Source: Bernardetiaceae bacterium
GTDB lineage: Bacteria; Bacteroidota; Bacteroidia; Cytophagales; Bernardetiaceae
Assembly (NCBI GenBank): GCA_020832465.1
Contig: JAFIER010000115.1
Coordinates: forward strand, 1-52,794
DNA length: 52,794 nt
Direction: 5' to 3'
The notes under the pieces are model-generated. The model was not told where the DNA came from. It worked only from the letters and a program-made list of their open reading frames with translations, and ran no database searches. The translations under genes were made by a program, and so were the position numbers. Shown piece after piece: positions 32,844 through 45,550 of the stretch; position 1 is the stretch's first letter, and every line of letters begins with the position of its first letter.

Positions 32844-32916
32844 TGGTGATGGGCAGATTCGAACTGCCGACACACGGATTTTCAGTCCGATGCTCTACCA
32901 ACTGAGCTACATCACC
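32844..32916 (-). tRNA. tRNA-Phe (GAA), distal copy
   Basis: 73 nt. Acceptor GGTGATG/CATCACC with discriminator A, D arm GCTC-AGTTGGTA-GAGC, anticodon stem-loop with loop CTGAAAA (anticodon GAA), T arm GGCAG-TTCGAAT-CTGCC. No encoded CCA. Identical to the copy at 32981-33053, 64 bp upstream. Confidence 0.97.
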
Positions 32917-32980
32917 GCAATAGGGTTTTGATAATTAGGTTGTAAGTTTTAAAGCAATACAATTTTTGATGTTGTATTTG

Positions 32981-33053
32981 TGGTGATGGGCAGATTCGAA
33001 CTGCCGACACACGGATTTTCAGTCCGATGCTCTACCAACTGAGCTACATCACC
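32981..33053 (-). tRNA. tRNA-Phe (GAA), promoter-proximal copy
   Basis: 73 nt, identical in sequence to 32844-32916: same cloverleaf, anticodon GAA. The two form a short tandem unit transcribed on the minus strand. Upstream is an element C insertion and then a promoter at 33225-33256. Confidence 0.97.
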
Positions 33054-37612: not shown

Positions 37613-38617
37613 TTAATTACCCGCTTGTCCGTTACCGCTTTCTGAGCCATTTGTGAGCGCACGCCCACTGCCTGTTCTTGCTTCTTGTGCTGTAATGACT
37701 TGCTTTTGAGGTATTTGTTCTTTTTGCTCTTGCTTATTTTCTTTTTGCGTCATTGTTTTTTCAAAAGCATCGAGCCTATCTTCGACTTGCTTCATGCGAT
37801 TATTTACGGTTTTCTCTTCTTGTGTTTGCTGTTGTTGAAAACCTGTATATACCTCGGTGCGCTGTGTAGGGTCGCTATGTGCAAGATCTAACATACCAAA
37901 GCCTTGTGCTGTAAACTCACCCAAGCCATTTTTGAAAATAAACTGCTGGACTTTAGGGTGCGCATAAAGTATAAAAGGAAATGTATAACCGCGCACTTCT
38001 TGCGCTTGCTTGTTATGCTTTACTTCATAAATACGTGCAAATTTTTTGTCTTCTTGTTGGACACGCTCTAAGTATCTCCTATCAGGGATCAGTTGAAACT
38101 TATAGAAGGAAGAAATGTCTTCTGGCGTATAAAAACCAGAGCGTTCCATGCGATTCATGGTAGATTCATAAAGCAAGTCCGAAAACTTGTCAATATTTGG
38201 CATAATAAACTCTTTGGGATCGCGACGCAAATGTAAGCCTGCAATCACCATAGGGGATATGCATATAAACTTATTTACCTCTTGCAAATCAGGCATTTTT
38301 TCCATTTCTACAGATTCAGGCTCGAGCTCTAGGTCGCCCAAACGAACTGCATCTTGTGAAAAGATTTTCATTAAAAGAAAATCTATCATTTTTTTGTTAT
38401 GACAAGAAAATACAAGTGTTACGCGACGAGAACAAAAGTGTAAACCCTTACGGCTCACCCTTGTCTGACCTTTTAAGCCCGAAAAATTGTATAAACCTGA
38501 CTCCCCCACCTCAGAGTTAGCGACTAAACTATCGATATACTCAGAAAAAATCTGTTGGTGATAAAAGGGAAGTACTGCCCCGCGATTTCTCAATACAAAA
38601 ATTACTCTTACTCTCAC
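37613..38617 (-). CDS. cas6: Stand-alone Cas6-like CRISPR RNA endonuclease with C-terminal tail
   Basis: A 334-residue protein; residues 1-250 are Cas6-like (two RAMP/ferredoxin-like folds). Visible landmarks are MRVRVIFVLRN with LPFYHQQ (His20), GLKGQ (47-51), RKGLHFCSRRVTLVFS (56-71), the FICISPMVI strand (117-125), ESTMNRMERSGFY (151-163), RGYTFPFILYA (209-219) and the glycine loop GLGEFTAQGFGMLDL (231-245). Cas6 cleaves hairpin repeats in pre-crRNA. His20 and Lys49 are candidate active-site residues; I cannot confirm the full catalytic set. Residues 250-334 are an added Q/K/E-rich tail ending NGSESGNGQAGN, absent from usual ~240-residue Cas6. No other cas gene and no CRISPR array is in the window. 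Confidence 0.85.
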   Translation of the reverse strand: MRVRVIFVLRNRGAVLPFYHQQIFSEYIDSLVANSEVGESGLYNFSGLKGQTRVSRKGLHFCSRRVTLVFSCHNKKMIDFLLMKIFSQDAVRLGDLELEPESVEMEKMPDLQEVNKFICISPMVIAGLHLRRDPKEFIMPNIDKFSDLLYESTMNRMERSGFYTPEDISSFYKFQLIPDRRYLERVQQEDKKFARIYEVKHNKQAQEVRGYTFPFILYAHPKVQQFIFKNGLGEFTAQGFGMLDLAHSDPTQRTEVYTGFQQQQTQEEKTVNNRMKQVEDRLDAFEKTMTQKENKQEQKEQIPQKQVITAQEARTGSGRALTNGSESGNGQAGN

Positions 38618-42455: not shown

Positions 42456-42668
42456 ATGACTAAAATACGTCTTGAAGTAAGCCTCGAAGAGGCCAATCTT
42501 ATTTTTAAAGCACTTGGAAAAGAGCCTTTTGCAGATGTCTATGAGCTTATCGGTAAGCTCAACGAACAAGCTAATGCACAGCTCCAAGCCCAGCAACAAC
42601 AGCGCAAACAAGATAGCAAACAGCTATCGCCTAATCATTTTCCCAAAACGCCTAAATCTTCATCATAA
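42456..42668 (+). CDS. Small protein coupled to the baseplate gene
   Basis: A 70-residue protein: an N-terminal strand-helix unit (IRLEVSLEEANLIFKALGKE, PFADVYELIGKLNEQ) with a Q-rich tail. The EANLIxKALGxxPF-x-x-V-x-E-L-I pattern occurs in small uncharacterised bacterial and phage proteins. Its stop TAA overlaps the ATG of the next gene by one base (TAATG at 42666-42670), a sign of translational coupling, so it probably works with or regulates the baseplate protein. Confidence 0.75.
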   Translation: MTKIRLEVSLEEANLIFKALGKEPFADVYELIGKLNEQANAQLQAQQQQRKQDSKQLSPNHFPKTPKSSS

Positions 42669-45550
42669 TGCAAGAGCCTTCGTTTATACAAAGCACGCCA
42701 GAAGAGGAAGAAATAAGCCTCAATTTTCGCCAACTCTATGAAGAAGGATTGCGTGAAGCGCAACATTTTTCAGGTGAAAATTGGACTGATTATAACATAC
42801 ACGATCCAGGAGTTACCATACTCGAGCAGCTATGTTATGCGCTTACTGAAATGGCATACAGAGCAAAGTTTGAAGTAGCTGATTTTCTCACAGATCCAAA
42901 AACACAAAAAATAAATCCGCAGAGACAAAGTCTTTATACCGCTGACGAAATTTTTGTCTCTAATGCACTTACTATTGAAGATTATAGAAAACTTATTTTC
43001 GATCGTGTATTCGAGGTCTTAAATGTGTGGATTGAGCCTGTTATACAAGAAGGGCACACTTTGCAAGGCTTGTATAAAGTCTATTTGCACCTCAACGAAC
43101 TCGTAGATACGCCAGAACAAAAACAGCAAGTCAAAGAACGAGTACGGAAAGTTTATGCAGCACATCGAAATCTTTGCGAAGATATCCAAGAAATTATTAT
43201 CCTTGAGCCTTTTAAAGTACGATTGCAAGGAGATATCTACCTTAATGAAAATTATGACCCCGAAGAAGTCTTGGCAGAAGTCTTTTTTAGAGTCAATAAG
43301 CACCTTGCACCCGAAATCCGATTTTATGCCCTTGAAGAAATGAAAAAAGAAGGTGCATCACTCGAGCAAATCTTTTCAGGGCCTGCCTTAAAGCACGGAT
43401 TTATCAAAAGTGAAGAACTCGAAGAGAGACCGAGAAATATACTCATATCAGATATTACGCGCATTATTATGGACGTAAAAGGAGTAGGAAGTGTCCAAAA
43501 CCTCACATTCTATGCAAAAGGAAAAGTGCACGCCGAACAAATGCCTATAAGTATCAATACTATTCCTATGTTGGATACAGAGCCTGATACAAGGGGAAGG
43601 CACGCCATGCATATACACCGAAATAACATTACTTTTAAAGTTGATAACGCCACCATACAAGCTGATTTTAATGCACTAAGAACAGCTTCACGCCGAATTT
43701 ATAGGCTTACTCATGGCGAAATAGAACTCCCAAAAGGACAAAAAAGAGACTTCAAAAACTATTATTCTATTCAAGAAGATTTTCCACTCAACTACGGCAT
43801 CAGTAGCCAAGGATTATCGCACAAAGCCTCGCCACAGCGAAAAGCCCAAGCTAAGCAACTCAAAGCCTATTTGATGTTCTTTGAACAACTCATGACAAAC
43901 TACCTCGCACAGCTCGAAGGAGTAAGAGAACTCTACTCCGTCAGCACAAAACTCAATAAAACCTATTTCTACCAACCATTAGATACTGTACCTAATAGCG
44001 AAGAACTTTTTGCAAAATCTGACGTAACAGAAGTCTCTTTACTAAGCAAAAACGGAACAATTCCGCATCATTATAAAAAAGGACTCGCACCCGTAAACAC
44101 ACAATACGATGACTATGCAGACAGAAGAAACAGGTTTCTTAACTACCTGCTCGCTATCTATGGAGAATCTTTTGCCCAATATTCTATCTCAAAGTTTAAC
44201 AAATATTTCGACCAAGACGACTACCAACACGCACTTATCGCTAATAAAATCCGATTTCTTAATCATATCACGCAAATTAGTAAAAATAGGGCAAAGGCTT
44301 TTGATTATACCGAAACAATTGATAACCCTCTTAATGTCTCGGGCTTAGAACTCAAAATCTGTATCCTCTTAGAGCTCGGATTGCTCAATCGTGAACGAAG
44401 CGCTCCTATTACACACCTCAACGAATCCCTTTTAGATGCTTTCGAAAACCGTGCAATGCGCCTTATCGGAAACTATATCGTCGACCCCGTCGTCGGAATT
44501 ATTCGCAATGAAAATATTAATAATGCCTACATTGAAAATAATTTTGAATATGTAGATGAAGACGAACAACATGAGTTTTCTGATAAACAAATTGATGCAC
44601 TCCTGCGCAAAACCCTACCCTTCCGAATGGAAACCATAGACGAGTATTATTTGCGCAAAGGCATAGATATGGAATACTATAAAATAGGACAAGACCCTGA
44701 TAATAAAGACCTTTACTATGCCGTTTATAAAGCAGAGGAAGATTCTGCTTGGCGCAAAATAGGTGAGTTTGCCAACCGTGCCGAGGCTGTAATGGGAATC
44801 AAAGAGCTTGTAGAGTTTGTCCGCGAACTCAACGTGCGTAGCGAAGGCGTACACGTGTTAGAACACTTTCTTTTAAGACCTAATTTTGAAGAAAATCGCT
44901 TTAATTTTGAAGTCTGCAACCGAAAAGGAGAGCGACAGCTTATACCCAAAGAAGCCATGACATTCGAAGCGCGCAACGCACTTTTGCAACAAATCAAACA
45001 AGGACTTGCAAAAAACGAAAATTATAGCATCAACGAAACCTTAGACTTCAAATACCGATTGCTTTTTACTTATGAAGCACAGCAACTTTTTGGACTTAAA
45101 GAGTTTGCTACAGAAGCAGAAGCATTAAAGGAAATTGCCAATCTTACAGATTATTTTACCATTACAGAAGAACAAGCCTTCCAAACCGCACACGAAGGCA
45201 TTAGGCTTCTTGTCAGAATCGATGAGAAAACTACAGTCCCAGAGCAGTTTTTTTCTTTTCAAATGAGTTTTGTCTTTCCAACCTGGACAGCCCGTTTTCA
45301 CGACCGTGAGTTCAGGCTTCTCGTCAAAGAAACACTCGCAAGAAATACGCCCGCACACCTCCAATCGCATTGCTATTGGCTCAAACCTGATGATATGCGC
45401 CGATTTGAATCTGCATTTTTTAAATGGCTACACGAAAAAACACTAACAAAACCCAACTTAAATCGTTTATACAAATTACAAAATCGTTTACTCAAGTTTT
45501 TGTTAGAATACGAACAGAAGGATTATCAAAATCCAGCCGTCATTAGATAA
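42668..45550 (+). CDS. Contractile injection system baseplate-like protein (gp6/J family)
   Basis: A 960-residue protein without signal peptide. Residues 35-65 (GENWTDYNIHDPGVTILEQL, then CYALTEMAYRAKFEV) carry the W-T-D-x-N-x-x-D-P-G-V-T-x-L-E motif of baseplate wedge proteins in extracellular contractile injection systems and related phage-tail-like particles. DVKGVGSVQNLTFYAKG (about 265-281) fits the J-like core. The C-terminal half (LEHFLLRPNFEENRFNFEVC near 730-749; SFQMSFVFPTWTARFHDREF near 857-876) is Bacteroidota-type. No sheath, tube, spike or AAA+ gene is nearby, so it is either an isolated component with the rest elsewhere or a repurposed relic. Confidence 0.82.
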   Translation: MQEPSFIQSTPEEEEISLNFRQLYEEGLREAQHFSGENWTDYNIHDPGVTILEQLCYALTEMAYRAKFEVADFLTDPKTQKINPQRQSLYTADEIFVSNALTIEDYRKLIFDRVFEVLNVWIEPVIQEGHTLQGLYKVYLHLNELVDTPEQKQQVKERVRKVYAAHRNLCEDIQEIIILEPFKVRLQGDIYLNENYDPEEVLAEVFFRVNKHLAPEIRFYALEEMKKEGASLEQIFSGPALKHGFIKSEELEERPRNILISDITRIIMDVKGVGSVQNLTFYAKGKVHAEQMPISINTIPMLDTEPDTRGRHAMHIHRNNITFKVDNATIQADFNALRTASRRIYRLTHGEIELPKGQKRDFKNYYSIQEDFPLNYGISSQGLSHKASPQRKAQAKQLKAYLMFFEQLMTNYLAQLEGVRELYSVSTKLNKTYFYQPLDTVPNSEELFAKSDVTEVSLLSKNGTIPHHYKKGLAPVNTQYDDYADRRNRFLNYLLAIYGESFAQYSISKFNKYFDQDDYQHALIANKIRFLNHITQISKNRAKAFDYTETIDNPLNVSGLELKICILLELGLLNRERSAPITHLNESLLDAFENRAMRLIGNYIVDPVVGIIRNENINNAYIENNFEYVDEDEQHEFSDKQIDALLRKTLPFRMETIDEYYLRKGIDMEYYKIGQDPDNKDLYYAVYKAEEDSAWRKIGEFANRAEAVMGIKELVEFVRELNVRSEGVHVLEHFLLRPNFEENRFNFEVCNRKGERQLIPKEAMTFEARNALLQQIKQGLAKNENYSINETLDFKYRLLFTYEAQQLFGLKEFATEAEALKEIANLTDYFTITEEQAFQTAHEGIRLLVRIDEKTTVPEQFFSFQMSFVFPTWTARFHDREFRLLVKETLARNTPAHLQSHCYWLKPDDMRRFESAFFKWLHEKTLTKPNLNRLYKLQNRLLKFLLEYEQKDYQNPAVIR

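What the first reader, a model, noticed from the sequence alone, without database searches (positions are those of the whole stretch)
42456..45550. Isolated injection-system baseplate protein with a coupled 70-residue partner
The W-T-D-Y-N-I-H-D-P-G-V-T motif places the 960-residue protein with baseplate wedges of extracellular contractile injection systems, but sheath, tube, spike, AAA+ and cap genes are absent from 52 kb. The upstream small gene overlaps by one base. Either the system is encoded in scattered pieces or the protein has been reused alone.
Basis: partly seen in the sequence, partly recalled or inferred. Interest (0 to 1): 0.6.

Follow-up and report, generated by a model that had tools for sequence, protein, structure and literature searches.

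The report
Scattered injection-machine gene and small partner
The protein is a true baseplate part of a phage-tail-like injection machine whose other genes lie elsewhere in the same bacterial genome, and the 70-residue gene in front of it belongs to an undescribed protein family that travels with these machines.

Summary
Confirmed and resolved. The 960-residue protein (42668-45550) is a full-length Cis12/Alg12-type baseplate wedge (All3315 E 2.8e-81, Alg12 1.9e-65). It is the only copy in its genome and it is not repurposed. The rest of the machine is there, single copy, on other contigs: cap, sheath, two tubes, plug, LysM adaptor, VgrG spike, gp25, Alg11 wedge and a fibre-like gene on C17; tape measure on C185; AAA+ ATPase on C61. 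Dispersal is not only an assembly artefact: it recurs in relatives, including a one-contig 9 Mb genome with its tape-measure gene millions of bases away. It was already reported for Amoebophilaceae endosymbionts (PMC6232779). The 70-residue gene is real and is the newer part: no Pfam, NCBIfam, PHROG or PDB match. Of 45 genomes with clear copies, 44 have an Alg12 homologue and the other has a sheath. All 20 full-length window-type wedges have it in the genome, 16 immediately upstream. In intact clusters it sits between fibre and wedge, or between VgrG and gp25. Best guess: a helical-hairpin assembly factor for the wedge-fibre unit.

The parts
42456..42668 (+). 70-aa small eCIS-associated protein (undescribed family): helical hairpin with a variable, probably disordered C-terminal tail
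   Evidence: AF2 of the single sequence gives helices 10-20 and 26-56, mean pLDDT 75.5
42668..45550 (+). 960-aa baseplate wedge protein, Cis12/Alg12/Afp12 type
   Evidence: phmmer against PDB: All3315 2.8e-81, Alg12 1.9e-65, SalCis12 1.3e-53, Afp12 6.6e-20, Pvc12 2.3e-18; profile covers N-terminus, middle and C-terminus; TIGR02243 E 1.5e-4 at residues 20-65, below its cut-off
42666..42670 (+). TAATG stop/start overlap of the two genes (possible translational coupling)
   Evidence: Sequence printed; small distances or overlaps between the two genes in relatives

Best explanation
The pair is one piece of a complete but dispersed extracellular-type contractile injection system. The 960-aa protein is the Alg12-type wedge, which together with the Alg11-type wedge encoded on contig C17 would form the six-fold iris around the spike and carry the tail fibres on its gp7-like outer half. 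Shown: its family, its single copy, the presence of the other components on C17, C185 and C61, and gene trees that agree with the sheath's. Inferred: that the products assemble into one machine. The 70-aa protein belongs to a conserved eCIS-associated family. Inferred, about 45%: it is a small helical-hairpin assembly factor or chaperone for the wedge-fibre unit, made in step with the wedge through the overlapping stop/start.
For: Wedge identity. Single copy. The other parts, each found at one locus: sheath PF04984, gp25, cap Pvc16_N (19), tape measure CIS_TMP 4.3e-67, AAA+ 54% identical to the ATPase in L033, which lies downstream of an Alg12 homologue there. C17 gene order and domains: CIS_tube/LysM, Phage_base_V spike, Baseplate_J wedge, DUF5908 plug matching Algo6. 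Sheath closest to the sheath of the SalCIS entries, E 2.3e-177. An intact relative cluster (G142) reads GH18-cap-p356-sheath-tube1-tube2-LysM-VgrG-PAAR-gp25-Alg11-fibre-small-Alg12-tape measure-AAA+ (54), so the window holds a displaced piece of its 3' end. Alg12 and sheath trees agree over 35 genomes, distance correlation 0.89. The eCIS genes have a GC content like the rest of the contigs. Small gene: 44 of 45 genomes with it have Alg12, and the remaining one, 79% complete, has a sheath; 20 of 20 window-type wedges have it. It lies between fibre and Alg12 in G013, G142, G452 and G542, follows Alg11-fibre in G181, and its weak phage relatives lie near tail-fibre or tailspike genes.
Against: No protein data; assembly of the products is inferred. 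No PAAR gene was seen on the contigs read and PAAR was not searched genome-wide. The assembly has 289 contigs, so the distances between the own loci are unknown. The correlation of wedge and sheath trees is also expected from shared ancestry alone. For the small protein, many eCIS with fibre and Alg12 lack it (G180, G187, G350), and in others it sits between VgrG and gp25, so the link to fibre or wedge is not exclusive. AF2 of the wedge failed for want of an alignment (pLDDT 31.8).
Confidence: 0.85

Rival explanations
1. The wedge protein has been reused alone for another function, with no injection system in the cell.
For: No other eCIS gene within 52 kb.
Against: All other core components tested except PAAR are in the genome in single copy, no second Alg12 exists to serve them, and its tree agrees with that of the sheath.
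Confidence: 0.03
2. The separation is an artefact of metagenome binning or mis-assembly; in the real chromosome the pair adjoins the C17 cluster.
For: 289 contigs; contig coverage could not be checked.
Against: The pair lies inside a 52.8-kb contig with housekeeping genes on both sides, and the C17 cluster also ends inside its contig. G002 (same family) has the same arrangement on large contigs and G005 has the wedge about 9.6 kb from the sheath. One-contig or near-closed genomes show dispersal too (G013, G045, G181, G123, G218).
Confidence: 0.06
3. The 70-aa protein is a structural baseplate subunit (a stable small adaptor bound to wedge, spike or gp25) rather than an assembly factor.
For: Conserved through reduced genomes (14 of 14 family f21 genomes that have Alg12, 0.7-1.9 Mb); gene slot VgrG-small-gp25 in G285, G054, G105, G326 and G740.
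Against: No match to any chain of solved CIS structures, though those species may lack it; not required in many related eCIS.
Confidence: 0.35
4. The 70-aa protein is a regulator or unrelated small protein that rides along by chance.
For: Occurs as an orphan between housekeeping genes in G067, G092, G169, G177, G045 and G135.
Against: Every one of the 45 genomes with a clear copy has an eCIS wedge or sheath, while nearly all genomes without an Alg12 hit lack it; recurrent in-operon positions across several families of the phylum.
Confidence: 0.12

Closest known systems
Alg12 of AlgoCIS (Algoriphagus machipongonensis, PDB 7aeb/7aef; PMC8894135)
   Same: Wedge protein; shared N-terminal core with the WTDYN.HDPG motif, middle region and C-terminal segment
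   Different: The variable outer region diverges; AlgoCIS was studied as one gene cluster; no PDB chain matches the 70-aa protein
All3315 / Cis12 of the Anabaena thylakoid-anchored CIS (PDB 7b5h; PMC8894136)
   Same: Best sequence match, E 2.8e-81
   Different: [quoted passage not shown] the window protein is 960 aa; clustered genes
SalCIS (SalCis12, SalCis16b, PDB 9rce, 9r9h, 9r9n)
   Same: Closest solved sheath, and strong wedge matches
   Different: No paper found in the library; gene layout not compared
T6SS-iv / phage-like translocation structure of Amoebophilaceae (Amoebophilus, Cardinium; PMC6232779, PMC8831229)
   Same: Genes dispersed: three blocks in Amoebophilus, up to six in Cardinium; unnamed reduced genomes of the same order (f21) carry the same wedge and small protein, mostly unlinked
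   Different: Described in obligate intracellular symbionts with small genomes; here the genome is 4.6 Mb. Mode of action here is unknown

Membership tests
Cis12/Alg12/Afp12 baseplate wedge | Sequence homology to solved Cis12 proteins over N-terminal core and middle region | tested here: met
Cis12/Alg12/Afp12 baseplate wedge | WTDYN.HDPG motif near the N-terminus | tested here: met
   aligned to All3315 and Algo12
Cis12/Alg12/Afp12 baseplate wedge | gp6-like plus gp7-like fold | tested here: inconclusive
   AF2 with two sequences failed; the sequence alignment covers both halves in part
Extracellular contractile injection system | Sheath, tube, spike, gp25, both wedges, tape measure, AAA+ and cap in one genome | tested here: met
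Extracellular contractile injection system | PAAR tip protein | tested here: inconclusive
   None between VgrG and gp25 on C17, unlike G013 and G142; not searched genome-wide
Extracellular contractile injection system | Genes linked in one operon (survey criterion: genes within 12 kb, at least ten core genes, PMC8213781) | tested here: not met
   The parts lie on four contigs, though C17 alone carries most of them; linkage is a survey criterion, not part of the machine's definition
Extracellular contractile injection system | Particles released and firing outside the cell | not testable with these tools
   Needs microscopy
T6SS-iv of Amoebophilaceae | Cell-attached firing from arrays | not testable with these tools
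   Needs cryo-tomography
T6SS-iv of Amoebophilaceae | Gene dispersal into several blocks | tested here: met
   PMC6232779

The most novel reading that the evidence does not exclude
The 70-aa gene founds a new family of contractile-injection-system components, distantly shared with phages, that is needed to build or attach the wedge-fibre unit. Its lineage keeps it even when its genes are scattered and its genome is reduced.
Probability: 0.45. Interest if true: 0.6.

Novelty: new variant of a known kind. Interest (0 to 1): 0.43.

Why it matters
At least one large eCIS survey calls a system only when many core genes are linked within 12 kb (PMC8213781), so strongly dispersed systems in this order could be under-counted. 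Dispersal was described in intracellular symbionts; finding it in 3-9 Mb relatives shows that an operon is not needed to keep such a gene set and that genome reduction alone does not explain it. The small family gives a concrete unknown component to test, with a strong association with eCIS genomes.

Tried and rejected
A scan of genome contigs with the single protein gave one relative. Viral-contig scans with the wedge and small-protein alignments confirmed nothing, and the 26-row alignment was too divergent for a pattern scan. AF2 of the wedge with only two usable sequences failed, so no fold search was run. The weak second sheath-family hit at C110 lies in a 952-aa ORF that looks like an outer-membrane receptor by sequence; rejected. 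I considered that the 70-aa gene replaces PAAR in the VgrG-gp25 slot, because G054, G105, G285 and G326 show no PAAR there; rejected as a rule because G013 and G142 have both. Promoter and terminator scan near the pair: promoters at chance level (8 found, 8.6 expected), terminators not interpretable. An earlier count gave 45 of 46 for the co-occurrence count; the recount is 44 of 45.

Full report
Observation. Both ORFs are present as described: 42456-42668 (70 aa) and 42668-45550 (960 aa), + strand, sharing the base A of TAATG. They sit inside contig C186, which is the whole window, between ruvB plus a 185-aa ORF and the NADH-dehydrogenase 20-kDa subunit and dnaA genes. The small ORF is conserved over many genera, so it is a gene.

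Identity of the 960-aa protein. Pfam and PHROGs give nothing significant; NCBIfam TIGR02243 (baseplate assembly) matches residues 20-65 below its cut-off. Against PDB sequences it matches Cis12 wedges: All3315 2.8e-81, Alg12 1.9e-65 and 3.7e-65, SalCis12 1.3e-53, Afp12 6.6e-20, Pvc12 2.3e-18. A six-sequence profile raises All3315 to 9.2e-139 and Alg12 to 1.6e-124 and aligns the N-terminus, the middle and the C-terminal 870-956 region.

Where is the rest? It is in the same genome (4.6 Mb, 289 contigs, 99.3% complete, 1.45% contamination). C17 carries, in order on its minus strand: GH18-domain membrane protein, cap (Pvc16_N), a 356-aa protein weakly like SalCis16b cap, sheath, two tubes, the plug (DUF5908, matches Algo6), a CIS_tube/LysM adaptor, a VgrG-type spike, gp25, an Alg11-type wedge and a fibre-like protein; then housekeeping genes. 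C185 carries the tape measure and C61 the AAA+ ATPase. Each component was found at a single locus, and the only Alg12 is the one in the window. No PAAR was seen between VgrG and gp25; it was not searched genome-wide.

Ancestral layout and dispersal. G142 has everything collinear: GH18-cap-p356-sheath-tube1-tube2-LysM-VgrG-PAAR-gp25-Alg11-fibre-small-Alg12-tape measure-AAA+. The window pair corresponds to a displaced piece of that 3' end. Other genomes show other breaks: G013 (one contig, 9 Mb) has its cluster at 1.09-1.10 Mb and its tape measure at 6.88 Mb, with a single sheath and a single Alg12; G005 has the wedge about 9.6 kb from the sheath; G002 has sheath, wedge and tape measure on three contigs; the small-genome family f21 has parts hundreds of kb apart on single contigs. 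Alg12 and sheath trees agree across 35 genomes, with distance correlation 0.89, permutation p 2e-4; this is expected for parts inherited together but shared ancestry alone would also give it. The literature already reports three blocks in Amoebophilus and up to six in Cardinium (PMC6232779).

The small protein. No curated family or solved chain matches it. A profile search over 390 genomes of the order gives 45 clear genomes (E 1.5e-6 or better) and two marginal ones. Of the 45, 44 have an Alg12 homologue and the other, G169 (79% complete), has a sheath. All 20 full-length window-type wedges (over 900 bits) have it in the genome, 16 directly upstream of the wedge. All 14 f21 genomes with Alg12 keep it, nearly always unlinked. 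It is not universal: 99 genomes have Alg12-type hits, and intact clusters in G180, G187 and G350 lack it. Positions: fibre-small-Alg12 in G013, G142, G452 and G542; Alg11-fibre-small in G181; VgrG-small-gp25 in G285, G054, G105, G326 and G740; orphan in G067, G092, G169, G177, G045 and G135. Across the wider phylum it is rare, 3 other genomes of 395, all in eCIS clusters. Weak phage relatives (E 5e-4 and worse) lie near tail-fibre or tailspike genes. AF2 of the single sequence gives a helical hairpin, helices 10-20 and 26-56, mean pLDDT 75.5.

Mechanism. In AlgoCIS, Alg11-Alg12 heterodimers form the wedge ring and the gp7-like half of Alg12 interacts with tail fibres (PMC8894135). By homology the window protein does the same with the C17-encoded Alg11 and fibre-like proteins. 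The stop/start overlap suggests, but does not show, that the small protein is made in step with the wedge. Its recurring place between fibre and wedge and its phage neighbourhoods favour a role in building or attaching that unit (about 45%); a permanent small baseplate subunit is the main rival (35%).

Verdict. A new variant of a known kind: a dispersed eCIS outside reduced-genome symbionts, plus an undescribed small component. The wedge itself is an ordinary member of its family.

Noticed in passing
G000:C61 2232-3268 (L058 2232-3268): CRISPR-like array: 16 repeats of GTTTCAATTCTCAAATAGTTCGATTTAAAG at about 66-bp spacing, about 3.6 kb from the AAA+ gene of the injection system.
   Followed up: partly
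window 37613-38617: Cas6-type gene (PF01881, E 5e-17); no other cas gene turned up among the window proteins that were scanned.
   Followed up: no
L037 16504-18393 (C17 42794-44683); also L061, L049, L135, L163: GH18-domain protein with a hydrophobic C-terminus beside the eCIS genes, next to the cap in several genomes; possible accessory for crossing the envelope or anchoring.
   Followed up: partly
L061, L043/L049, L131, L134 (G013, G054, G062, G132): A recurring module beside the eCIS: a protein of about 1000-1070 aa with a P-loop motif (labelled nSTAND here from its sequence), often with a 350-375-aa and a 440-484-aa protein.
   Followed up: no
G191:C4 539484-541023: Sheath homologue read in two overlapping frames: frameshift or sequencing error.
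   Followed up: no
window 32844-33053: Two tRNA genes on the minus strand with identical Rfam scores, 137 bp apart start to start.
   Followed up: no
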